Assembly: GCA_015206935.1 (NCBI GenBank)
Contig: JADEXW010000001.1
Span: forward strand, 1 to 36,936
Length of the DNA stretch: 36,936 nucleotides
Reading direction: 5' to 3'
From: Pseudanabaenaceae cyanobacterium LEGE 13415
Lineage (GTDB): Bacteria; Cyanobacteriota; Cyanobacteriia; Leptolyngbyales; Leptolyngbyaceae
Below the pieces are notes generated by a model, which did not search any database, was not told the origin of the DNA, and saw only the letters and a list, made by a program, of their open reading frames with translations. Shown here piece after piece: positions 1 to 29,701 of this stretch (its first letter is position 1; each line of letters starts with the position of its first letter). The translations under genes were made by a program, and so were the position numbers.

Positions 1-210
1 ATTGATGAATTGCTGATCAATCTCTAAATCTTTGATTTTTTCTTAAATTAGCGTCCGGACAGTCAAGTTTCGACCCGTAGAAAAGGTGGGTAGCGTGTGC
101 GAATACTACTTGCAAGCTAACTTTTCACACAGCCCACATAAAATTGGTTTTGCTCCTCAGCATGACGCAGTTCCCCATTTCTGCCCTTTAACGACATCAA
201 AGGAGAAACA

Positions 211-327
211 ATGGAAACGACCAAACTCCAGCATCAAACCGCTGCGATCGAACTGACTTTTACTCGTGATGCGATCGCGAATTCAGGCTGTGCAAATCTC
301 ATCGGTATCGATGCCAGCGTCCCCTAA
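211..327 (+). CDS. 38-residue peptide, candidate cargo of the adjacent exporter
   Basis: Small ORF of 38 codons starting METTKLQH and ending GIDASVP. The ATG at 211 follows AGGAG at 201-205 with five bases of spacing, the best ribosome binding site in this part of the window. It lies about 190 bases upstream of the prolyl isomerase gene and heads a same-strand run encoding an ABC exporter and HlyD adaptor, which is where precursor peptides for C39-type exporters often sit. The front half is hydrophilic; the rear half contains SGCANLIG, a short Gly/Ala/Cys stretch loosely like a double-glycine processing site, but no true GG is present. I do not recognise a family. Bases 328-513 after it hold no convincing gene, so a longer ancestral peptide cut by an early stop is also possible. 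Function is inferred from position only. Confidence 0.45.
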   Translation: METTKLQHQTAAIELTFTRDAIANSGCANLIGIDASVP

Positions 328-513
328 ACATCGTCCTAGTCTTCGATTAGCATTCTCTGGAATTTGTTCTAACCGTTTGCGTGTCGCTTACGTTTTCCTA
401 GATGAATTGATCAGCACTAAAGTTCCTTGCTGCACTCTAATTTTCTTCTGCCTAGGAATGACACCGCAAAAGACTGGTTAGGCGCATTGCACTTTGAGCA
501 GTTTCGGTGACTC

Positions 514-1311
514 ATGAGTACTTGTCTAAAGATTGGAAACTTAGCGCTAACGGGAACGCAGGTTGTTTCTGCACTTGCTCGCTATCAATTACTGGAACCC
601 TTTATAGAACAAATCTTTCTAGATTCTGTGCTACAAACTGTCCCGCTCACCGAAGAGGATGTGTTTCGCGCACTGACAGGTCGTGCAGGTGCAAACGCGC
701 CCGTAGATTTTGAGGCATTTGTGGCGGAGTGGTTGCAGCAGCGGCAATTGTCGAAAACTTATTTAGAAGGAGTCATTTATCGACAGCTTCGGATCGAGAA
801 GCTAAAACGGCTACGCTTCGAGCAACATCTACAATCTGAATTTCTGCGGCGCAAGTCGGAATTCGATCAGGTTGAGTTTTCTCTCATTCAACTATCGAAT
901 CTGTCTTTGGCGCAGGAACTCTTTTTTCGGATTCGAGATGATCAAGCAGAATTTGGAGCGTTGGCGCAAAAATATTCGCAAGGCATGGAACGCCAAACAC
1001 AGGGCTGGGTCGGTCCAGTCAAGCTCCAACAGCTACCACAATCGATCGTTCAAGCATTTGTTCAAGGTCGAGTCGGGGGGGTCTATGGTCCGTTTGCGAT
1101 CGACACTCACTTCTGGATTGTTCGCTTAGAGCAAATGTATCAAGCCCGATTAACTGAGTCAGTTCGATCGGAACTGCGCGATCAGCTATTTTCTAAGTGG
1201 CTGAAGATGAGCGCTCGATCAGTGATGCAGGATACTGCAAAACTCCAAATTGTAGGAGCGCAAACCGATGTGAAAGCTTCAGCGGCTCTACCAGAGCAAA
1301 AGGCTTCTTAG
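514..1311 (+). CDS. Parvulin-type peptidyl-prolyl cis-trans isomerase of a secretion locus
   Basis: A 265-residue protein. Residues about 1-110 are helical and resemble the SurA/parvulin N-terminal region. Residues about 117-208 match a PPIC-type rotamase domain: strand VEFSLIQL, then AQELFFRI, FGALAQKYSQG, the turn QGWVGPV, PQSIVQAF, and the end strand FWIVRLEQM. Parvulins catalyse proline peptide-bond isomerisation and act as folding helpers. No signal peptide or membrane segment is visible, so it probably works in the cytoplasm on the exporter's substrate or components, unlike periplasmic SurA. The gene lies upstream of a cyclic-nucleotide-binding-like protein, ABC exporter and HlyD adaptor on the same strand, with a 50-base gap to the next gene. 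Family assignment is good; the link to export is inferred from the neighbours. Confidence 0.82.
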   Translation: MSTCLKIGNLALTGTQVVSALARYQLLEPFIEQIFLDSVLQTVPLTEEDVFRALTGRAGANAPVDFEAFVAEWLQQRQLSKTYLEGVIYRQLRIEKLKRLRFEQHLQSEFLRRKSEFDQVEFSLIQLSNLSLAQELFFRIRDDQAEFGALAQKYSQGMERQTQGWVGPVKLQQLPQSIVQAFVQGRVGGVYGPFAIDTHFWIVRLEQMYQARLTESVRSELRDQLFSKWLKMSARSVMQDTAKLQIVGAQTDVKASAALPEQKAS

Positions 1312-1361
1312 CCTGCTGAAATCGAAATGATACCCGTTTAGAAAGTCGATGACACTGTGTT

Positions 1362-2129
1362 ATGACGAGTACCTATGCTCAAATCGAAGCGCTATTACCT
1401 ATCTTTCATAACGCTTATCCGTTCAATGGCTTGTCTGCCTTTATTTGTCGTTATTTGACGAGTCGCCTAGAAGTCGTTTCTTTCTTGCCTGGTCAGGTGA
1501 TTTATTCCGAGGATAAGCCGATTTCGATGATTCATTGCTTGGTCAAGGGACAAGTTCAGGTTCTTGGTTCTGCGGCGATTCAGTCTCCGACGCTTGCTGT
1601 GTTAGGAGCAGGGACAGTCATCGGATGGGAAAGATGGTTGCGATCGACAACATTTGGGTCAGTCAGAGTTGCCGGAATTGAAGATCCTGTGACGACATTG
1701 GCGCTGCGGATTGAACATTTTGAACAACTTGCGGTGCCAGAAGTGCTGCCCGTTTTGGCTGAACAATTGTCGATCGCTGAATTGTTCGAGGTGATGATTC
1801 GCTTTGTCGAAAGGCTACCTACTCCGCTCTCAATCAATGACCTAAAAGCGCTGATTTACCGAATCTATCAGCAGCGTTTAGCGATCGCCTATCACTATTT
1901 ACCGAATACAGACGGTTCTCTCTCTCCGAAGTATCAATGGTTTATGAGTAGCAATCACGCGATCCCGATCGGGACTCCGATCCGATCGCTGTCTGCACTG
2001 TCCACTGATACGACCCATCAACCTGTGCGATTAATTGGCATCGATCGTCAATGTTTAGCGACTGCGCTGAAGCCACAAAGTCCGCCTCCGATTGCCGTGT
2101 TCCATGCTGAGAAGGAGTACATTTCGTGA
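1362..2129 (+). CDS. Stand-alone cyclic-nucleotide-binding-like protein, paralogue of the exporter N-terminus
   Basis: A 255-residue protein whose first 150 residues have the layout of a CNB/Crp-type beta-roll: PGQVIYSEDKPISMIHCLVKGQVQVLG, shown here only by its parts (PGQVI, IHCLVKGQVQV), then AGTVIGWERWL and FGSVRVAG. The usual phosphate-binding cassette FGE-x-AL is changed to IGWERWL, so cyclic nucleotide binding is doubtful. The whole length aligns with about residues 1-250 of the next gene, including shared pieces AYPFN, SIAEL/TIAEL, RLIGIDR and a terminal domain after residue 150, so the pair arose by duplication. The stop codon overlaps the next start (GTGA, 2126-2129), which implies translational coupling and joint function. 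It may pair with the exporter as a docking or control subunit; this is inference. Confidence 0.78.
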   Translation: MTSTYAQIEALLPIFHNAYPFNGLSAFICRYLTSRLEVVSFLPGQVIYSEDKPISMIHCLVKGQVQVLGSAAIQSPTLAVLGAGTVIGWERWLRSTTFGSVRVAGIEDPVTTLALRIEHFEQLAVPEVLPVLAEQLSIAELFEVMIRFVERLPTPLSINDLKALIYRIYQQRLAIAYHYLPNTDGSLSPKYQWFMSSNHAIPIGTPIRSLSALSTDTTHQPVRLIGIDRQCLATALKPQSPPPIAVFHAEKEYIS

Positions 2130-5100
2130 CTCATGTTAACCTCCAAGTTCAGTCATTTTTGCCGATCTTGCTAACCGCTTATCCGTTTAATCGGTTGTCT
2201 CCTGCTGCTCATCAGCGGTTGGGTCAGCAAGTAACGCTGAATACCTTTCAGGCTGGGCAAGTGATTGCAGATGAAGGAGAGCTTCCTTCTGCAATTCATT
2301 GCGTTGTGCAGGAGCAGGTTCGGATTGTTGGATCTGCTAAATCTGGCTCACCTACTTTGCGCGTGACAGAACCAGGAGATGTCGTGGGATGGGAAAGTAT
2401 TCTGAGACGGCGGGCATTTGGTTCGATTCGAGCAGTCGGGCTAGAAAGTGAGGTGCTGACACTATCGATCAGCGCGGACGATTTTGAAACCCTGATGCAC
2501 GATGAACTGCTTCCCAGTTTGACTGAAGAAGTGACGATCGCGGAGCTTTACGATATTCTGCTGCAATTCATCAGCAAAATTCCAGTCCAGCTTCCCACAT
2601 TTGATCTCAAAGTCGTTATCCAGCATTTGCAGGATCATCAATTAGCGATCGCTCGTCATTGGTTCCCACAAAATGGAACTGCTGAACTCCTACCGACTGA
2701 TTATGTTTGGTTTGTGAGTGGAGGCGCTCCGGTTTCTGTGCCTGTCGGAATTCCAATCAAAGCGTTAGAGCGGATTGTGCCGCTAAGAGATTCAAGGCTG
2801 CCCGTTCGATTAATCGGCATCGATCGTACTGTGTTGGCAACGGTTCTCACATCAGGGACACTTCCGGTTCACGCTACCAACGATTCGGGACTTCCGCGAG
2901 AAGCAGAAACAGTCATTGCATTACTAGAGGGATTATTATCACCAAAATCAGATGTAGACCCTGAAGAGCTACCTACGCAATCCTCCTATCCAATTCACTT
3001 TGCTCGATCGTACGAGATGGAAGAATATTCGGTTGCCTGCTTCTGGATGGTGTGTGACTATCTGAAGATTCCTTATCGTCCGGATGTGCTGCGACGCTGG
3101 TTTACAAAATTCCCGACGCTACCTAGTGATATGCTGCCGATTTATAGTCGAATTGCTGAAGCATTTGGACTGCGATCGCAGCTTGTCGAGCTACTTCCCA
3201 CAGTCGGCGGATTAGGACGATTGCAAACGCCAGCTTTAGTGATTGTCGATAATATTCCTTGTGTATTGTATGAAGTCACTCCAAGAGCTGCGATTCTCGG
3301 ATCACCTGCGACCGGACTATTAAGACTGTCTCCGAATGAAGTTTCAAAACAACTAAAACGAAGCGATCGTAAGCTAACTCATGCGCTATTGCTCGAACGC
3401 CAACCGATGAGTCCAGTGAAACGATTTGGCTGGGGCTGGTTTTTGCCGTCACTGCAACCGCATCGAGCGATCGTCTTTCAAATTCTAGTAGCATCGGTCT
3501 TTGTGCAACTATTAGCGCTTGCGAATCCACTGTTAACGCAGCAAATTATTGATAAAGCGATTATTAACGGCAGTGCTGATGCCCTGCCTGTATTTGCGCT
3601 ATTGATGCTAACGTTTACCCTATTGGAAAATGTATTAACTATTTTGCGAACTTATCTGCTCAACAGTACGACCAATCGGATTGATCTGATGTTGGGGACT
3701 GAAATTGTTCGACATTTACTAAATCTACCGCTCAACTTTTTTCAAAAACGCCCTGTCGGAGAACTCGCAACGCGGATTTCAGAACTTGAAAATATTCGTC
3801 AGTTTCTCACAGGTACATTTCTAACCGTCTTGTTAGATGTGCTGTTCTGCGGCATCTATATTGCGATGATGCTGGTTTATAGTGTTCCATTAACGCTCTG
3901 TGTCCTTGGCTTCGTACCGATCGTCATTGGAATTACACTGTTTTCTTCACCGCTTCTGCAAAAGCTGATCCGGAAGAAGTCTGATCAAAACGCCAGAATG
4001 CAGTCTTATCTGATTGAGATTCTGAACGGAATTTTCACGATGAAGTCCCAGAGCATGGAAAATCTGGTGCAAGCCAACTGGCGCATTCAGTATCTAGGCT
4101 ATTTAGGAACAAGCTTTCGTACCACAATGCTAGGGGCTGCCGCTGGATCAATCAACAACATTGCAAACAGTGCCAGCAGTTTAGTTGTGCTTTGGGTAGG
4201 GGGGAGTCTTGTCTTACAGGGAAATATGACGGTTGGAGGACTGATTGCTTTCCGAATTATTTCTGGCTATGTAACAGGCCCACTCGTGCGTTTATCGAGA
4301 CTTTGGCAGAAGTTTCAGGAAACAAACTTATCGATGGAACTCTTAGCAGATGTTGTCGATACTCCGACCGAAATTGCGGGAGACGATGCGAATCTATCAA
4401 TTCCTCAAATTCGTGGACAAGTGAAGTACGAAGCAGTCAATTTTTCATTCCCCAATAGCGGTCAACAACAACTGACCAACATTAATCTAGAAATTCCATC
4501 TGGAACGTTCATCGGTTTAGTGGGACAAAGCGGCTCTGGAAAAAGTACTTTATTGAAACTATTACCGCGCTTTTATCTGCCGAGCGAAGGCACAATCTAC
4601 CTAGATGGATATGACATCAGCAAAGTTAGCTTGAGTTCACTCCGGCATCAACTTGGCGTTGTCCCTCAAGATCCGGTATTGTTTGAAGGAACCATTCGAG
4701 ATAACATTACAAGCTTTGCTGAAGTCGAGGATGCGATCGTCATGCAAGCTGCCAAAATTGCTGAAGCGCATCAGTTCATCATGGAACTTCCAAACGGCTA
4801 TAGTACCAGAGTTGGAGAGCGCGGCTCTAATCTTTCGGGTGGACAGCGACAGCGCATTGCACTTGCCCGGATGATCGTTAGCAATCCTCAACTCGTGATT
4901 CTAGATGAAGCGACGAGTGCTTTGGACTATGAAACCGAACATCGAGTTTGTCAGAATTTGCGAGAACACTTTCGAGGAAAAACCTTGTTCTTCATCACTC
5001 ATCGCCTTGCTAATTTGGTCAATGCTGATTTGATCCTCTATCTACAGTCAGGCACAGTTGTTGAGCAGGGAACACACGCGCAACTGATAGCCAAGCGACA

Positions 5101-5134
5101 ACGATATTATTCACTGTTTACTCAACAAGCCTAA
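2126..5134 (+). CDS. ABC exporter with CNB-like domain, degenerate C39-like domain, TMD and NBD
   Basis: A 1002-residue one-polypeptide half-transporter of type 1 secretion or bacteriocin-export type. Order: CNB-like region (about 1-250, paralogous to the preceding protein); C39 peptidase-like domain (about 285-430); six-helix ABC transmembrane domain (about 450-730); nucleotide-binding domain (about 755-1000). The NBD is intact: Walker A GQSGSGKST near 800, signature LSGGQRQR near 903, Walker B LVILDEATSALD near 923, and H-loop ITHRL near 957. In the C39-like domain my manual alignment puts Tyr301 at the catalytic Cys, Ile377 at the His and Ser in place of the Asp, so it probably binds rather than cleaves, like the HlyB CLD. 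The start is GTG at 2126, overlapping the previous stop. HlyD follows after 34 bases. Exporter function is secure; cargo is unknown. Confidence 0.93.
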   Translation: MTHVNLQVQSFLPILLTAYPFNRLSPAAHQRLGQQVTLNTFQAGQVIADEGELPSAIHCVVQEQVRIVGSAKSGSPTLRVTEPGDVVGWESILRRRAFGSIRAVGLESEVLTLSISADDFETLMHDELLPSLTEEVTIAELYDILLQFISKIPVQLPTFDLKVVIQHLQDHQLAIARHWFPQNGTAELLPTDYVWFVSGGAPVSVPVGIPIKALERIVPLRDSRLPVRLIGIDRTVLATVLTSGTLPVHATNDSGLPREAETVIALLEGLLSPKSDVDPEELPTQSSYPIHFARSYEMEEYSVACFWMVCDYLKIPYRPDVLRRWFTKFPTLPSDMLPIYSRIAEAFGLRSQLVELLPTVGGLGRLQTPALVIVDNIPCVLYEVTPRAAILGSPATGLLRLSPNEVSKQLKRSDRKLTHALLLERQPMSPVKRFGWGWFLPSLQPHRAIVFQILVASVFVQLLALANPLLTQQIIDKAIINGSADALPVFALLMLTFTLLENVLTILRTYLLNSTTNRIDLMLGTEIVRHLLNLPLNFFQKRPVGELATRISELENIRQFLTGTFLTVLLDVLFCGIYIAMMLVYSVPLTLCVLGFVPIVIGITLFSSPLLQKLIRKKSDQNARMQSYLIEILNGIFTMKSQSMENLVQANWRIQYLGYLGTSFRTTMLGAAAGSINNIANSASSLVVLWVGGSLVLQGNMTVGGLIAFRIISGYVTGPLVRLSRLWQKFQETNLSMELLADVVDTPTEIAGDDANLSIPQIRGQVKYEAVNFSFPNSGQQQLTNINLEIPSGTFIGLVGQSGSGKSTLLKLLPRFYLPSEGTIYLDGYDISKVSLSSLRHQLGVVPQDPVLFEGTIRDNITSFAEVEDAIVMQAAKIAEAHQFIMELPNGYSTRVGERGSNLSGGQRQRIALARMIVSNPQLVILDEATSALDYETEHRVCQNLREHFRGKTLFFITHRLANLVNADLILYLQSGTVVEQGTHAQLIAKRQRYYSLFTQQA

Positions 5135-5168
5135 TCGAGACCACTGTTCCATCACTCCAACCCGTCCT

Positions 5169-6641
5169 ATGCAGAAGAAGTCATGGTTTACCAATTTTGT
5201 TCGCGTGATTCAGGGAAAAGCCGATGCCGCGATCGCGGTAATTGACGATCGACAAGTCCCACAACTCGAACTTCCACAGCCCGCAAATTGGGCGAAACGC
5301 ACTACTCAGGTCATTATGTTCGGGTTAGTGGTGGGATTGGGTTGGTCGATTTTTGCACGCATGGAAGTGGTCGTGACAGCACGCGGAAAGCTCGAACCTT
5401 TATCTTCAGCACAATCGGTACAACCCCGCTTCAATGGTGTCATCAGCGCTGTCTTAGTCAAAGAAGGTCAAAAAGTTCGAGCTGGACAAGTCCTGATGCA
5501 GCTTGACAAAGGGGATTTGTTGAATCAATTGAAAACGCTTTCGACTCAGCGTGAACTGCTAGTGAAACAAGTTGCGGTCTTGAGATTAGCGCGACAAGGG
5601 CAACCGATCAATGCTCAAGTTCAACGAGCATTCCGCATTCCGCCAGAACTTTACAATCGCGTCCAAAACCGTCAATTGTTAACAGCACAACTCACAGGTA
5701 ATCCGAGTGGACTCTCGCCGGATCAACTCCAGCGATATCGCTTATTTGTGCGAGAACTCCAAGATGTACAGGCAGAAAATCGATTGCAATTGGGCAATTT
5801 GCGCGTTCAAGAATCTGGCGCAAATTCAGACCTGACCAATAACAGTTCTCAGCTGCGCGTAGAGCAGGAATTGGTGGCGAGACTGAATGAGTTAGTCAAG
5901 CAGGGCGCAATTTCTAGAACTGACTATCTTCGTCGCGTCGTAGGGGTGAATGACTTACAAAACGAGGTGAACCAAAGCCAAGTCCAACGCGGTCAAATAG
6001 CGATGAGTCAAATTCAAGCGCAGGTGAGTGGCAGAAAAGCGATCGATGAACTTTATCGCAACGTCCAAGATCAACTGGCTCAACTGGATAACCAACTCGA
6101 CAGCAGTATCGAAGCGAGTCAGCAGCGAATTATCCAGCTCAATGGTCAACTTCAGCAGCTCAGATCGGATCTCAAAGCGCAAGAGCTACGATCTCCGGTC
6201 GATGGCGTTGTCTTTGATATCAAACAAAAAGTGGCAGGAACTGCGGTTCGTCCGGGCGACGTGCTGATGCAAATTTCGCCTGATGAATCGCTTGTGGCAA
6301 ATGTTCAGGTAGCAAATTCAGATATTGCTGATCTCCGAGTGGGTCTGCCTGTGGATGTCCGTTTAGATGCTTATCCGTTTACCGAATTTGGCTCAATTCA
6401 GGGTGCGATTACTCGAATTTCCAGTGATGCGGTTCCGGTTTCCGAGCAATCTCCGAATGCTGGGACTGTCTTTCCGGTGACTGTCGTTCTCAAGCAATCG
6501 CTACAGAAACGGGACAAGAAATTTTCGCTATCGCCGGGTATGACGCTCAATGCAAATATTAAAGTGCGATCGCGAGCGCCAATCTCGCTCGTTGCAGATC
6601 AAGTGGTGAAACTCTTTGACAGCACAAAGAATATTCGATAG
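5169..6641 (+). CDS. HlyD-family periplasmic adaptor (membrane fusion protein)
   Basis: A 490-residue type 1 secretion adaptor. A short cytoplasmic head (about 1-45) is followed by one membrane segment (about 46-63, MFGLVVGLGWSIFA). Then comes the first half of a lipoyl/barrel-sandwich domain (VVVTARGKLEP, VISAVLVKEGQKVRAGQVL), and a long Gln-rich coiled-coil hairpin from about 115 to 340. The returning lipoyl half is LRSPVDGVVFDIKQK (ELRSPVDGVV) and a beta-barrel domain follows, with SPGMTLNANIKV at the end. Such adaptors bridge the inner-membrane ABC exporter to a TolC-type outer-membrane channel. No outer-membrane partner is encoded in this window, so a TolC homologue elsewhere would be needed. 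It is the last gene of the export locus and is followed by a strong hairpin 20 bases downstream. Confidence 0.92.
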   Translation: MQKKSWFTNFVRVIQGKADAAIAVIDDRQVPQLELPQPANWAKRTTQVIMFGLVVGLGWSIFARMEVVVTARGKLEPLSSAQSVQPRFNGVISAVLVKEGQKVRAGQVLMQLDKGDLLNQLKTLSTQRELLVKQVAVLRLARQGQPINAQVQRAFRIPPELYNRVQNRQLLTAQLTGNPSGLSPDQLQRYRLFVRELQDVQAENRLQLGNLRVQESGANSDLTNNSSQLRVEQELVARLNELVKQGAISRTDYLRRVVGVNDLQNEVNQSQVQRGQIAMSQIQAQVSGRKAIDELYRNVQDQLAQLDNQLDSSIEASQQRIIQLNGQLQQLRSDLKAQELRSPVDGVVFDIKQKVAGTAVRPGDVLMQISPDESLVANVQVANSDIADLRVGLPVDVRLDAYPFTEFGSIQGAITRISSDAVPVSEQSPNAGTVFPVTVVLKQSLQKRDKKFSLSPGMTLNANIKVRSRAPISLVADQVVKLFDSTKNIR

Positions 6642-6660
6642 TACTCCTATCATTTTTGTT

Positions 6661-6694
6661 GAAGCAAAATCAAGTTCAATCTTGATTTTGCTTC
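6661..6694 (+). terminator. Perfect 14-bp hairpin after the export locus
   Basis: Bases 6661-6674 (GAAGCAAAATCAAG) are the exact reverse complement of 6681-6694, with a six-base loop. It begins 20 bases after the hlyD stop and is followed by TTATT, so it is a plausible transcription terminator. The long A/T-rich stem also gives a T-rich exit on the other strand, so it may serve the minus-strand remnant ending at 6702 too. Confidence 0.7.
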
Positions 6695-6701
6695 TTATTC
6701 A

Positions 6702-6944
6702 CTAGCTGTAGAATTGATGCTGCAAGTCATGAACTTGCTCGGCGAGTTCGGCAAATGGATCTTCTACCACCAGATTAGGAACAATTTCCTGAATCAGTAG
6801 GGAACGGACGGGCGGGGTCGGAACTCCGAATTCGGTAAGCCAGGTTGTGAGTTGTTCAGCCGAACGGTTAATTTCCTCCCGCTAATGCTCGGTTGCTAGC
6901 TTGATACATCGCTGTAAATGCTGCAAGTCAGTGTCGTTAATCAT
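6702..6944 (-). pseudogene. Small conserved-looking ORF broken by one amber codon
   Basis: Reading the minus strand from ATG at 6944 gives 20 residues (MINDTDLQHLQRC...), a TAG at 6882-6884, then 59 residues in the same frame to a TAG at 6702-6704. The second half reads as ordinary protein (LTEFGVPTPPVRSLL, then IVPNLVVEDPFAEL) and ends just before the hairpin at 6661-6694. A single substitution from a GAG or CAG codon would explain the break. I do not recognise the family; it looks like a small helical protein of about 80 residues. A sequencing error or true readthrough cannot be excluded. Confidence 0.5.
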
Positions 6945-7427
6945 CAAAATTCCTGCGTGATTAGTTACGATGAGAGAGATAGTACGGATTTTGCTCTGAG
7001 ATTAGGGCTTAAGCTATTCTCAGAGAGCAGATTAGTCTGCCTTGTCATCATTCTAATTTGGCGGTTGTCGGTTAGAAATGGAACTCGATGAGTGACCTCA
7101 AGTGAACTAACAGGTGGAGCGGATCGCAATAGTTCTGCTCGGATCATCGTTATGCAGTTCGATAGAGAAGCATCAAACAGTGAAAATATAGCTAACTTAA
7201 ATGCTGAAACGAACACAGCGATCGACTTATCAATGAGTGGCACATGGAAGTTGTTGATTCACCACAATTTGACTACCTCGCAAAATCCCAAAGCTTATCG
7301 TGGAACTATTTTGCTTTCTATTTCCGATCAATAGGAAGTAGTACTAGAACACTCATCGGGTACAGTCAGCGAGCCAAGTCCTCGAAGTGTTGCGCTCGAC
7401 ACTTGCACTCATCACACTATCGCACCT
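6945..7427. other. Intergenic stretch without a convincing gene
   Basis: Several short open frames occur on both strands but none has a recognisable family pattern, a good ribosome binding site or the hydrophobic rhythm of a real protein. An inverted repeat (CTCTGAGA at 6994-7001 and its complement at 7018-7025) encloses the palindrome GCTTAAGC at 7007-7014. The stretch may be decayed DNA between the export locus and the convergent permease gene. Confidence 0.4.
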
Positions 7428-8477
7428 TTAATCACCTTGCGCTTCTTCAAGATTTAACAAACTCACAATCACACCTGCGATCGGTACAGATAAAAAGACA
7501 CCAAGCAGTCCTGACACTCGTGTTCCTACTAAGAGCGCAAAAAATACAATCACAGGACTCAGATGCACCGTCGTTTGCATCACACGCGGTGCTAGTAGAT
7601 TGTCTTGTAGTTGCTGTAGAATCACACAAATCGCCAGTACCTTGAGTGCTGTTAGCCAGCCGCTCTGCACTAAGATGATTAAGCAAACAACTGTTACACC
7701 CAACGTTGCACCAATACCAGGAATTAAGTCAAATACACCAACCGTTACTGCAAGCAAAAACGAAAATGGGATCTCAAACAGCACAAACACAAGAAAAGTT
7801 GCAACACTCAACAGAAATGAAATGAGTAATTGACCTTGAAGAAATCCGACAAAGTTCGTTTGCACTGCTGCCGCGACTCGCTTTCGATGCTGGGATGGCA
7901 CTAATTTCAGTACCAGTTGCCAGAGTTTTGCGCCATCAATTAACATAAAAAAGGCAACGACGAGAATAATAATGAATGTGACATAGTTTTGTAAAAGAAT
8001 TGGTAGAGAACTCACTGCCCAATTGAATCCAGCCGTAAATACGTTACGAACCTGAAGCTCGATCGCATCAAGGTTGAGCGGAATATTTTGGGCTGCGAAT
8101 AGAGATTGCAACTGGTCGAGTGGATTGTTTGTCGTATTGAGCGACTGTAGTAATAACGTGGTTAATTGCTGAATTTGATTGGTGAGTGTGAGCGCGATCG
8201 CGATGACTGCGACAAGAATAATAATCAGGCTCGAAGCAATGACTAAACTGAGTGCAACGCTTCTCTTCATAAAGCGCTGTAAATAGCGCACTGGATAGTT
8301 TAAGATAAGAGCGAGAATGGCGGAAATCGCAAACACGAAGATAACATATTCAAAATATTGAAACAGGGCAACAAACGCCCAACCGGAGGCAAAGAATAGC
8401 AGAAAACGAACTAAAGCGTTTGTGCTAATTCGACTCCAAAGCGGAGAATGATGGTTGGAATTCGTCGATCGACTCAT
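7428..8477 (-). CDS. AI-2E/UPF0118-family membrane permease
   Basis: A protein of about 349 residues with many hydrophobic helices, matching the AI-2E transporter (UPF0118, YdgG/TqsA/PerM) family. The N-terminal pair of helices (FLLFFASGWAFVALF, FVFAISAILALIL) precedes the family pattern NYPVRYLQRF, a polar central region with Gln-rich helices, and the C-terminal block with FDLIPGIGATLG and SPVIVFFALLVG, where Pro and Gly spacing is typical. Members export small molecules or ions; the name AI-2 transporter comes from one E. coli member, and the substrate here is unknown. I place the start at ATG 8477 (MSRSTNS) rather than an upstream TTG at 8516, because the latter lacks a binding site and adds a basic stretch outside the family. 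It is transcribed towards the export locus and divergently from the oxoprolinase. Confidence 0.88.
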   Translation of the reverse strand: MSRSTNSNHHSPLWSRISTNALVRFLLFFASGWAFVALFQYFEYVIFVFAISAILALILNYPVRYLQRFMKRSVALSLVIASSLIIILVAVIAIALTLTNQIQQLTTLLLQSLNTTNNPLDQLQSLFAAQNIPLNLDAIELQVRNVFTAGFNWAVSSLPILLQNYVTFIIILVVAFFMLIDGAKLWQLVLKLVPSQHRKRVAAAVQTNFVGFLQGQLLISFLLSVATFLVFVLFEIPFSFLLAVTVGVFDLIPGIGATLGVTVVCLIILVQSGWLTALKVLAICVILQQLQDNLLAPRVMQTTVHLSPVIVFFALLVGTRVSGLLGVFLSVPIAGVIVSLLNLEEAQGD

Positions 8478-8691
8478 AACCGTTGTGACTCTCTTGAACT
8501 TTCTACCGCACCGCAAAATGAGTCGATAGAACTCTGTTTAAAGTCCAAATTCCATGAGCAGAAAGCAGAAATTTGAACAAACGAAAATATCTAAAATCAT
8601 GTCTAAAACTCCGTCAATCAACATCATCCCTTGGAGGCTTGCCTATCGCCTGAATACGATGAATATCTAGGCAATGTTGATGAAAAAGTTC

Positions 8692-8696
8692 AGAGG
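8692..8696 (+). promoter_or_regulatory. Ribosome binding site that decides the oxoprolinase start
   Basis: AGAGG at 8692-8696 is placed five bases before ATG 8702. An in-frame GTG at 8696-8698 shares a base with this site and so would have no binding site of its own. Confidence 0.6.
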
Positions 8697-8701
8697 TGAT
8701 C

Positions 8702-11700
8702 ATGCTCAAAGTATTTGCCGATCGAGGAGGAACATTTACAGATTTAGTAGCCGTCACAGATGATGCAAAAATCATCGATCGACTATCAACCCAGTCTGAA
8801 CGCTTCCAAATTACATCGCTTGCAGATCAGTCCTGGATCATTATCTATAAATTGCTCTCAGAGCAACCCGAACAGTATCAAGATGCAGTCATTCAAGGGA
8901 TTCGAGACATTTTAGGATTGTCCAGCGATCAACCGATTCCATCTAGAGCAGTTGAAGTCGTGAAGATGGGAACAACGGTTGCCACAAATGCTTTATTAGA
9001 GCGCAAAGGGGAACGAACCTTGCTACTGATCACCGAAGGATTTCGAGATGCACTCGCAATCGGCTATCAGAATCGTCCAAATATCTTTGCGCGGCAGATT
9101 GTTCTACCAGAGCGAGTTTATGAACGAGTGATTGAAGTTAAAGAACGCTACACAGCACAAGGAGAAGAGATCGTTCCAATCACCGCTGAAGAAGAAGTAA
9201 GACTTACGACACTGTTACGGGAAGCTTATACCGATGGAATTCAAGCCGTTGCGATCGCATTTCTGCATAGTTATCGCTATCCGCAACACGAACAGCAGAT
9301 TGCAGCGATCGCGCATCGCATTGGCTTTACTCAAATCTCTATTTCTCATGAAGTAAGTCCATTGATGAAGCTGATTCGTCGAGGGGATACAACGGTGATC
9401 GATGCGTATCTTTCTCCGATTCTCAGGCAATATGTCGATCGAGTTGGATCAGCACTGCAATCCACAACTAAGCTAGAGTTCATGAAATCTGATGGTGGAC
9501 TTACTGAAGCACAACGATTTCAAGGTAAAGATAGTATTCTTTCTGGTCCTGCTGGTGGCATTGTTGGAGCGGTAAAAACCAGTACTGCTGCGGGATTTGA
9601 TAAAATCATTGGCTTTGATATGGGAGGAACTTCAACGGATGTATCTCACTACAATGGAGAGTATGAGCGCACGTTTGAAACTGAAGTTGCAGGCGTGCGA
9701 TTGTGTGCCCCAATGATGTCGATTCATACGGTTGCAGCGGGTGGCGGATCAATCTTGCAGTTTGATGGATCGCGCTACAGAGTAGGACCAGAATCGGCTG
9801 GAGCAAATCCCGGGCCTGCTTGCTATCGGAAAGGCGGATCGTTAACTGTGACCGATTGCAATGTTCGATTAGGTAAAATTCAGCCTGAATTCTTTCCGCA
9901 AGTATTTGGATCTGAGGGAAATTTGCCACTCGATCGAGCAATTGTAGAGCAAGAATTCGCAGCACTGACCGCAGAAATTCAAGCGAAAACCGGAGATACT
10001 CGCACTGATGAACAGGTTGCCGCTGGATTTTTGGAAATTGCGATCGACAAAATGGCGAATGCAATCAAAAAGATTTCCGTTCAACGCGGCTATGATGTCA
10101 CGCAATACACGCTCTGTTGCTTCGGAGGTGCAGGAGGGCAACATGCTTGTCTAATTGCTGAAGCGCTGGGAATGACAAAAATTTTTATTCATCCGTTTGC
10201 TGGAGTGCTTTCGGCATATGGGATTGGACTCGCAGATGTACGAACTTTGAAAGAGAAAGCGATCGAAGCTCCTTTAAGCACAGAGCAAATTTCTACATTA
10301 GAACAAACATTGTTAATGCTTGATACAGAAAGTCGATCAGAAATTATTGCTCAAGGAAAAAGTAGCGATCGCATTGAAACGATTTTCAAGGTGCGTTTAC
10401 GCTATCAAGGAACCGATTCTGCTTTAACCGTGAACTTCGATCGAGCAGAAACAATGAGACAGCAGTTTGAGGAAATCTACCAGCAGCGCTATGGATTTTC
10501 AATGCCCGATAAAGGGTTAATTGTTGAAGCGGTTTCAGTAGAAGCGCTTGCACATACCGATTCAATTACAGAACGTTTGATTGCTGAAGGTCGATCGACT
10601 CCACTTCGGTCAATTGCAACTGTTCGGATCTACACGAAAGGAGCTTGGCACGACACTCCCGTTTATCGTCGGCAAGATTTAAGACCTGGAGATCGTATTA
10701 CTGGTGCAGCTTTGATTCTGGAACCGACTGGAACGAATGTGGTTGAGCCTGGGTGGTGTACAGAACTCACACAACAGAACTATCTAATCTTGAGCAAAAT
10801 TAAGGAGGTTCAGGAGCTTTCTACAGCCATTTCACCTGTTGCGGCAACTCCTGATCCAGTATTGTTGGAGATTTTTAATAACTTGGTTCGCGCGATCGCA
10901 GAAGAGATGGGAATCACGCTTCAGAACACAAGCTACTCAGTCAACATCAAAGAACGGCTCGATTTCTCTTGCGCTATCTTTGATCAATTCGGGCAACTGG
11001 TCGCAAATGCTCCTCATATTCCCGTTCATCTAGGTTCAATGAGCGAAAGTGTGAGTCGTTTAATACGGGCTAAAGGCAATGTACTAAAACCTGGAGACGC
11101 TTTCGCCTCGAACAATCCTTATAACGGCGGTACTCATTTACCAGACATCACAGTGATTACTCCGGTGTTTGTTCCGAATCGCCCTACACCGATGTTTTAT
11201 GTTGCTTCGCGGGGACATCATGCGGATATTGGCGGAATCACACCCGGATCAATGCCGCCCCATAGTACGACGATCGACCAAGAAGGCATTTTGCTCGACA
11301 ATGTGCAAATCGTCGATCGCGGAAAGTTTCAAGAAGCAGACCTCTTAGAAATTCTCACAACCGGAAACTATCCCGTTCGTAATCCAGTTCAGAACTTAGC
11401 CGATTTACAAGCTCAGATTGCAGCAAATGAGCGCGGCGTACAGGAACTCTGTCGCATTGTTGAACAATACGGATTAGAAGTCGTACAAGCTTACATGCAG
11501 CATGTTCAGAACAATGCAGAAGAATCCGTTCGGCGCGTGATTGATGTTCTGAAACCCGGTTGCTTCGACTATCTGATGGACGATGGCAGCAAAATTTGTG
11601 TTGATATTCAAATCGATCGTACAACTCGATCGGCTCGAATTGATTTCACCGGAACTTCTCCACAGCAATCCACAAATCTCAATGCTCCTCTAGCAATTTG

Positions 11701-28320: not shown

Positions 28321-29701
28321 ATTGTCAAATGTGGTGTACGAGAGAATTAAGCTGCATCTTTCTTGTTTAAACGATCGCGTTCCTCCTCAACACGAATTCC
28401 ATCTGCAAATTTGACTCCTTCAATCACCTCCGCTAATCGATTAAATTTCTGAATTCTGAGCCATCGGTTTTGGGCGCTCTGCACCCATTTGAACACCAGG
28501 GACAAAATGCTCGACTGTGAGACACAGCCTCTCGTTTTATCAGTTCTCAAGCGCACGGTTGCAAAGGTCGATTCAATCGGATTGCTCGTGCGAATGTGCA
28601 TCCAGTGTTCAGCCGGGAAATTGTAAAAGGCGAGCAAAGCAGTCCGGTCTTTGCTGAGGCATTCCACGGTCTTGGGATACTTGGTTTCGTAGGTTTTGAT
28701 AAAGCGGTCAAAGGCAGTTTCAGCATCAGCTTTAGTGGCAGCGAGATAGATATCTCTGAGTGCTGTCTTCGCTTGCGGTTGTTGCGAACTGGGCAAGGTG
28801 TTGAGAACATTAGCAGTCTTGTGTACCCAACAGCGTTGAACCTGAGTCGCGGGAAACACTTGCCGCAGAGCCTTCCAAAATCCTAAAGCACCATCCCCAA
28901 TTGCCAATTCTGGAGCTTGCTTTAAGCCCTGGTCTTTCAGGCGTAGCAATAAACTGCTCCAGTTTAGCTCCGATTCGCGAAACCCAGCCTCTAGTCCTAA
29001 CAGTTCTTTGTGTCCGGTGTCACCCCAATCAGCACCAGAATGCACTGTCGGTCATCTTCGGCTCGAATGTTGAAGTAAACGCCATCTGCCCACACATACA
29101 CATATCGCTTGCCCTTAAGCCTGCGAGTTTGCCACGCTTCATGCTCAGTGATCCACTTTGTTTTCAAGCGGCTAATCGTACTCGATGACAAGCCTGCTGC
29201 ATTTGCACCTAAGAGTGAAGATAATGCCTCCTCAAAATCTCCAGTGGAGATGCCTTTGAGATACAACCAGGGTAGAACTTCTTCGACCGAACGAGAACGC
29301 TTTAAGTACGGTGGCAACAAGCTCGAATTGAACTTAATCCCACTTCGACTTCTATCGCGCACTTTTGGCGCTTGGACTGCCACTTCTCCGACTCCTGTTG
29401 TAATCGTGCGTTCGGGTAGATAGCCATTCCGAACGACTGCTTTGCGTCCTTGTTCATCGCGCAAGGATTGATAATGCTCTAGAAACTCTTGTAATTCTGC
29501 TTCCACCGCTTGAGCAATAATTTGTCGTGCGCCTTGTCGAACTCATTCCGTCAGTGCATCTGTAAACGTTTCTGTTGTCTCTAGCGTTTTGAATGCAATT
29601 AAGTTATCGTTGTCCACGGTGTATTCCTCGTCTGATCTTTTTTGTCTTTCAGCAGGATACGCCTTTTTTCTCCTTATTTTTCATACACCAGATTCAACCA
29701 T
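28321..29701 (-). mobile_element. IS256-type insertion sequence, degenerate
   Basis: An element of about 1.38 kb containing one broken IS256-family transposase gene. Its ends are imperfect inverted repeats: left ATTGTCAAATGTGGTGTACG (28321-28340) and the complement of 29682-29701 agree at 15 of 20 positions, sharing TGGTGTA. No 8-base target duplication is visible, because the left flank is the ISAs1 remnant and the right flank the MITE end, which fits a deletion at one side. Confidence 0.75.
28347..29617 (-). pseudogene. IS256-family transposase with stop and frameshift
   Basis: Read from a GTG at 29617, the frame begins VDNDNLIAFKTLE, meets TGA at 29543-29545 (LTE-stop-VRQGARQII), continues EAELQEFLEHYQSLRDEQGR, APKVRDRSRSG, and GISTGDFEEAL, then shifts frame near 29020-29030. 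There LIGVTPD is followed by TKNC and a stop, where functional relatives have DG-x-KELLGLE. The second frame continues GHKELLGLEAGFRES to the end. Loss of four bases from a GGACGGAC pair would explain the shift. The DDE residues are visible: Asp in YVWADGVYF, Asp in AIGDGALGF, and Glu in NPIESTFATV. With both lesions the enzyme should be dead. Confidence 0.85.

What the first reader, a model, noticed from the sequence alone, without database searches (positions are those of the whole stretch)
211..6694. Compact type 1 secretion locus with an unusual set of parts
Seen: a small peptide ORF, cytoplasmic-looking parvulin isomerase, a free CNB-like protein, a transporter carrying a second copy of that CNB-like region plus a C39-like domain, an HlyD adaptor and a terminator hairpin, all on one strand. 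Known: C39 exporters usually travel with GG-leader peptides and an HlyD protein. Inferred: a one-cargo export machine in which the isomerase helps the cargo and the two CNB-like parts act as a regulatory or docking pair. A prolyl isomerase without a signal peptide in such a locus is uncommon in my knowledge.
Basis: partly seen in the sequence, partly recalled or inferred. Interest (0 to 1): 0.72.

Follow-up and report, generated by a model that had tools for sequence, protein, structure and literature searches.

The report
Cyanobacterial exporter operon with dead helpers
This is a type 1 secretion operon of a kind common in cyanobacteria, usually filed as a 'bacteriocin' cluster, but its processing peptidase and its prolyl isomerase have both lost their active sites and its relatives sit beside large calcium-binding proteins, so it most likely exports those; only an extra stand-alone nucleotide-sensor-like gene sets this copy apart.

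Summary
All parts described are in the sequence: PpiC-like gene (514-1311), free CNB protein (1362-2129), transporter with CNB + C39-like + ABC (2126-5134), HlyD (5169-6641), 14-bp hairpin (6661-6694). The 38-aa 'peptide' ORF (211-327) is not conserved; no GG-leader ORF was found. ppi-transporter-hlyD is not unusual: 32 of 40 related loci have it, and Wang et al. 2011 described it as group I cyanobacterial 'bacteriocin' clusters. Three tests change its meaning. (1) The C39 triad (Cys, His, Asp) is lost in the window and in every relative aligned, PCC 7002 included, so it cannot mature GG peptides. (2) All 23 named close relatives have an RTX-like gene nearby. (3) The isomerase has the SurA/PrsA fold, no signal peptide and no parvulin catalytic residues. 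Best reading: an HlyB-like secretion system for RTX-like exoproteins with a cytosolic pseudo-parvulin chaperone and a CNB regulatory domain. The free CNB is a diverged paralogue of the transporter's own N-terminal module, translationally coupled to it, and found as a clean separate gene in no other genome examined. Its function and the window's own cargo are unproven: the contig starts 513 bp before ppi.

The parts
211..327 (+).
514..1311 (+). PpiC/SurA/PrsA-like protein, 265 aa, no signal peptide by eye, parvulin catalytic residues lost; proposed cytosolic chaperone of the exporter
1362..2129 (+). free CNB protein, 255 aa: paralogue of the transporter's N-terminal module; stop overlaps the next start (GTGA)
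2126..5134 (+). 1002-aa ABC exporter: CNB module + C39-like domain + TMD + NBD
2126..2923 (+). N-terminal CNB module of the transporter (the second copy)
2963..3439 (+). C39-like domain (CLD); Cys to Tyr, His to Pro, Asp to Ser relative to active C39
3482..4285 (+). ABC transmembrane domain (residues 453-720)
4472..4918 (+). ABC ATPase domain (residues 783-931)
5169..6641 (+). HlyD-family periplasmic adaptor, 490 aa
6661..6694 (+). 14-bp perfect hairpin after hlyD, likely transcription terminator with a weak T-tract

Best explanation
An operon for a type 1 secretion system of the HlyB (C39-like domain) sort that exports RTX-like or other large exoproteins in one step, with HlyD and a TolC-family protein encoded elsewhere. 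Shown by sequence: domain content, loss of the C39 triad, loss of the parvulin catalytic residues, SurA/PrsA-like fold (predicted model), conserved order ppi-transporter-hlyD, RTX genes beside the close relatives. Inferred: the pseudo-parvulin keeps the unfolded cargo export-competent in the cytosol and hands it to the C39-like domain; the transporter's CNB gates the exporter in response to a small ligand that is probably not cAMP (HetC's CNB binds ppGpp). The free CNB is a diverged duplicate of that regulatory module, made together with the transporter by translational coupling; it most likely pairs or competes with the transporter's CNB and so tunes export.
For: Gene order: ppi upstream in 32/40 related loci and hlyD downstream in 37/40; three of the eight without ppi begin at a contig edge within 180 bp. 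RTX: 22 of 23 named close relatives, the 23rd (L184) completed by the longer stretch L135; HemolysinCabind confirmed on representatives. C39 triad: every transporter of the family that was aligned lacks the Cys, His and Asp that active paralogues L154/L061 and PCAT1 have. CLDs go with RTX cargo (review PMC8277102). Parvulin: H, C, H of PpiC become L, G, W; the model matches PrsA and SurA, E 4e-8 to 1e-6. CNB fold Z 17. The free CNB keeps 43/66 family-conserved columns against 52/74 for the fused window copy and has no stop, so it looks maintained as a folded protein. TolC-family (OEP) genes are in the genome.
Against: No RTX or other cargo gene is on the window's contig and the upstream side is missing. 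More distant relatives sit beside giant Ig/PKD/Calx-beta or nuclease proteins without RTX repeats by Pfam, so the cargo class may be broader. The C39-like domain of the window scores below Pfam's cut-off. Chaperone role, CNB ligand, co-transcription and CNB pairing are untested. The free CNB is known from one genome, so it could be a neutral acquisition.
Confidence: 0.7

Rival explanations
1. Bacteriocin (double-glycine peptide) export cluster, as group I clusters were named in 2011: the transporter cleaves a GG leader and exports a small peptide, the SurA-like protein modifies it.
For: Gene content equals Wang et al. group I: long-type CAP_ED-C39-ABC transporter, SurA/rotamase, HlyD (PMC3140520). 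Databases annotate the relatives as bacteriocin exporter or 'peptidase domain-containing'.
Against: Catalytic Cys, His and Asp are absent in the window and in all relatives of this family aligned, including the pAQ7 cluster of PCC 7002; no GG-leader ORF in 1-9000 by a pattern scan; the 38-aa ORF is not conserved.
Confidence: 0.07
2. The free CNB is a relic of a second transporter copy whose C39-like and ABC parts were lost, with no present function.
For: Same length and register as the transporter's N-terminal module, ends in the linker before the C39-like domain; only one genome has it; longest branch in the tree (1.03).
Against: No stop codon despite deep divergence; retains 65% of conserved columns, close to the fused copy's 70%; the Shine-Dalgarno of the transporter lies inside its 3' end and GTGA overlap ties it to the operon.
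Confidence: 0.3
3. The free CNB is a dedicated subunit that forms mixed dimers with the transporter's CNB, or a soluble decoy for the same ligand, and sets when export runs.
For: Paralogy to the transporter's own module, coupling to its translation, constraint similar to the fused copy; CNB proteins commonly dimerise (own knowledge); HetC's CNB is needed for function and binds ppGpp (PMC10986499). Stand-alone proteins of two CAP_ED domains occur in group V clusters.
Against: No interaction data; single genome; the position of the conserved phosphate-binding Arg is F in the free copy, so the ligand is unknown.
Confidence: 0.4

Closest known systems
Group I cyanobacterial 'bacteriocin' gene clusters (Wang, Fewer, Sivonen 2011, PMC3140520); e.g. 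ppi-ABC-hlyD on plasmid pAQ7 of Picosynechococcus PCC 7002 and on plasmids of Leptolyngbya boryana
   Same: SurA/PpiC-like gene, long-type CAP_ED-C39-ABC transporter and HlyD
   Different: The window has an extra free CNB gene. My alignments show the C39 is dead in this family, so the bacteriocin reading does not fit. That the pAQ7 cluster is the one Wang et al. counted is inferred from gene content and their count of one for PCC 7002.
HlyB/HlyD/TolC type 1 secretion (CLD subgroup)
   Same: Inactive C39-like domain with Tyr at the Cys position, ABC core, HlyD adaptor, RTX genes beside relatives
   Different: N-terminal CNB module and dedicated SurA-like protein; His and Asp of the triad lost too; scores below NCBIfam's HlyB cut-off
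HetC of Nostoc PCC 7120 (PMC10986499)
   Same: CNB + C39 + ABC in one chain, cyanobacterial
   Different: HetC's C39 is active (C347, H420), no adaptor gene nearby, acts in heterocyst formation
SurA / PrsA chaperones and TIGR04500 PpiC-related peptide maturation proteins
   Same: Helical lobe plus one parvulin domain; TIGR04500 matches 24 of 26 members at E<1e-3
   Different: No signal peptide seen, catalytic residues lost; far below TIGR04500's cut-off (41.7 against 180 bits in the window)

Membership tests
HlyB-type (CLD) type 1 secretion system | ABC exporter core plus HlyD-family adaptor in one operon | tested here: met
   TIGR01843 229.9 bits over cut-off 208.65
HlyB-type (CLD) type 1 secretion system | C39 fold present but catalytic Cys lost | tested here: met
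   Tyr in the window
HlyB-type (CLD) type 1 secretion system | NCBIfam type_I_sec_HlyB (TIGR01846) curated cut-off | tested here: not met
   best family hit but 634.7 bits against 725.55: works like HlyB, not a strict member of that model
HlyB-type (CLD) type 1 secretion system | RTX cargo gene in the cluster | tested here: inconclusive
   none on the window contig, but in 23 of 23 named close relatives
HlyB-type (CLD) type 1 secretion system | TolC-family outer membrane protein available | tested here: met
   OEP family at several places in the genome
PCAT / double-glycine bacteriocin exporter | catalytic Cys-His-Asp of the C39 peptidase | tested here: not met
PCAT / double-glycine bacteriocin exporter | GG-leader precursor gene nearby | tested here: not met
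   pattern scan of small ORFs in 1-9000, none; sequence upstream of the contig start not available
Wang group I cluster (by gene content) | CAP_ED-C39-ABC transporter + SurA/rotamase + HlyD | tested here: met
   C39 in a degenerate form
Parvulin-type prolyl isomerase (as an enzyme) | active-site His, Cys/Asp, His | tested here: not met
   L, G, W in the window; none of 33 family sequences has the first or last His
SurA/PrsA-like chaperone | helical chaperone lobe plus parvulin fold | tested here: met
   model pLDDT 88.1; PrsA/SurA matches E about 1e-7, parvulin domain TMt 0.84 to 3gpk
SurA/PrsA-like chaperone | export signal | tested here: not met
   N-terminus MSTCLKIGNLALTGTQVVSAL shows no signal peptide by eye; no predictor was run
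Cyclic-nucleotide-binding domain | CNB fold | tested here: met
   Z 17.3, rmsd 2.2 over 138 residues
Cyclic-nucleotide-binding domain | phosphate-binding cassette (Gly-Glu ... Arg) | tested here: not met
   Glu and Arg positions are W and F in the free copy and other residues in the fused ones; register compared by eye with the canonical motif
HetC | active C39 and no membrane fusion protein nearby | tested here: not met
   dead C39, HlyD present

The most novel reading that the evidence does not exclude
A ligand-gated type 1 secretion system: a catalytically dead cytosolic SurA-like chaperone feeds unfolded exoproteins to the exporter, and a stand-alone CNB paralogue pairs with the transporter's CNB to switch export by an alarmone such as ppGpp. 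The most abundant class of cyanobacterial 'bacteriocin' clusters would then be misnamed exoprotein secretion systems.
Probability: 0.2. Interest if true: 0.62.

Novelty: new variant of a known kind. Interest (0 to 1): 0.42.

Why it matters
Group I clusters (57 of 145 in the 2011 survey) carry the label bacteriocin. If, as here, their C39 is dead and their neighbours are RTX or giant exoproteins, many such predictions are wrong and the true exoproteins can be sought. A dedicated cytosolic pseudo-parvulin would be a chaperone part that the classical RTX systems lack, and a CNB on the exporter makes regulation of secretion by a nucleotide directly testable. The free CNB gives a natural two-copy case for that test.

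Tried and rejected
GG-peptide cargo: rejected (dead triad, no GG-leader ORF, non-conserved 38-aa ORF). Other free CNBs: candidates in class genomes (L135, L136, L138, L139, also L137) have ORFs that end or begin in unrelated residues, as frameshifts do, so none is a clean separate gene. RTX, DUF2808 or U471-like remnants in the window: none by tblastn. Rfam elements in 1-7500: none. Promoter-like sites: fewer than in shuffles, uninformative. The window's C39-like domain alone finds no solved structure; the family profile finds PCAT1. The first genome-contig scan with the transporter alone found nothing. Grouping the free CNB with the window's own transporter (local tandem duplication) is not the best tree but is not rejected (p-AU 0.112). 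The C-terminal half of the CNB module (about 170-255) is barely covered by fold matches; its fold was not tested apart. Literature searches for a parvulin + CNB + type 1 system found no functional study; the 2011 survey surfaced only with the words bacteriocin gene clusters.
Full report
What is there. The window is a whole contig (C260 of a 5.86-Mb, 1060-contig cyanobacterial genome), beginning 513 bp before the first gene of the locus. On the plus strand lie a PpiC-like gene (514-1311), a free CNB gene (1362-2129), a 1002-aa transporter (2126-5134), hlyD (5169-6641) and a hairpin (6661-6694). The free CNB's stop and the transporter's GTG start overlap (GTGA), and the transporter's Shine-Dalgarno (AAGGAG) lies inside the CNB gene.

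Gene order elsewhere. In 40 related loci drawn from 58 genomes, a homologue of the PpiC-like gene lies just upstream of a fused CNB-C39-like-ABC transporter in 32 and hlyD just downstream in 37. Named relatives include Leptolyngbya, Stenomitos, Oculatella, Phormidesmis, Tildeniella, Calothrix and others. In all 23 close named relatives an RTX-like gene lies nearby, typically divergent upstream and/or downstream of hlyD, often followed by a DUF2808 gene. More distant members sit beside giant Ig/PKD/Calx-beta proteins or, on pAQ7 of PCC 7002, an extracellular endonuclease.

The C39-like domain is dead. Aligned with PCAT1 and with active long-type cyanobacterial paralogues (SDCGAAC, HYVVVY, ADPALG), the window has EEYSVAC, PCVLYE and GSPATG: Cys to Tyr, His to Pro, Asp to Ser. 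None of the transporters of this family that I aligned has the triad. HlyB too has Tyr for Cys, and such domains go with RTX cargo and not with cleaved leaders (review PMC8277102). This removes the GG-peptide reading.

The isomerase is a pseudo-enzyme. PpiC's His, Cys and C-terminal His correspond to Leu, Gly and Trp in the window, and the two His are absent across the family. The predicted structure (pLDDT 88) matches PrsA and SurA foldases. With no signal peptide it should act in the cytosol, where unfolded cargo waits; that is inference.

The CNB modules. The free CNB model (pLDDT 87.5) has a clear CNB fold. By comparison of the motif, the residues that hold the cyclic phosphate are replaced in the free and fused copies. 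HetC's CNB, in an otherwise similar but catalytically active exporter, does not respond to cAMP, binds ppGpp with Kd about 59 uM and is needed for function (PMC10986499); transfer to this family is inference. The free copy is 41% identical to the fused window copy, falls with the copies of its genus (support 87/80, long branch), and keeps 43 of 66 conserved columns against 52 of 74. Among 42 genomes of the family and 291 of the class no other clean separate copy was found.

Other modules in the same genome. C667 carries ppi-transporter-hlyD after a 2798-aa PKD/Calx-beta/endonuclease protein. C691, C154 and C356 look like pieces of a canonical RTX cluster. C136 and C50 pair other C39-family exporters with PpiC-like genes. 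C450 holds two RTX-like genes that could be cargo of the window system; this is a guess.

What is known. Wang et al. 2011 defined seven groups of cyanobacterial 'bacteriocin' clusters; group I, with this gene content (long-type CAP_ED-C39-ABC transporter, SurA, HlyD), was the commonest, in one to three copies in nearly all genomes that had clusters (PMC3140520). The single group I cluster they list for PCC 7002 is most likely the pAQ7 locus, whose C39 is also dead. So the layout is known; what I add is the loss of both active sites, the RTX neighbourhood and the free CNB. I found no functional study of this family in the library searched, which lacks most subscription journals.

Verdict. A known kind of locus, probably misnamed as a bacteriocin cluster, with one lineage-specific extra gene. 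Moderate interest.

Noticed in passing
L057 (G000:C154), L194 (G000:C691), L193 (G000:C356): A second, canonical RTX-type cluster of the same genome seems split over three contigs: RTX + U471-like gene; 5'-truncated transporter + hlyD + RTX start; RTX remainder + DUF2808 gene. Its ppi is missing from the assembly.
   Followed up: partly
L058 (G000:C667): A third module: ppi-transporter-hlyD downstream of a 2798-aa protein with PKD, Calx-beta, cadherin-like and DNA/RNA non-specific endonuclease domains.
   Followed up: partly
L199 (Picosynechococcus PCC 7002 plasmid pAQ7, record 68503-79721): The group I-type cluster follows a 1686-aa ExeM/NucH-family extracellular nuclease gene, a likely cargo in a laboratory strain.
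   Followed up: partly
L154:6485-14411 and L061:4195-7317: Long-type transporters with a CNB-like N-terminus and intact C39 triad (HetC-like); L154 also has hlyD and a PpiC-like gene downstream.
   Followed up: partly
window 28347-29045 and 28997-29506, minus strand: Two overlapping ORFs look like one transposase gene (mutator/IS256-like by eye) broken by a frameshift.
   Followed up: no
L135, L136, L138, L139 (draft genomes): Transporter genes of this family broken by frameshifts in or after the CNB part; may be assembly errors.
   Followed up: partly
L039:11792-13207 and homologues: A conserved 260-470 aa protein with no Pfam match lies divergently upstream of the module, often behind the RTX gene.
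   Followed up: no
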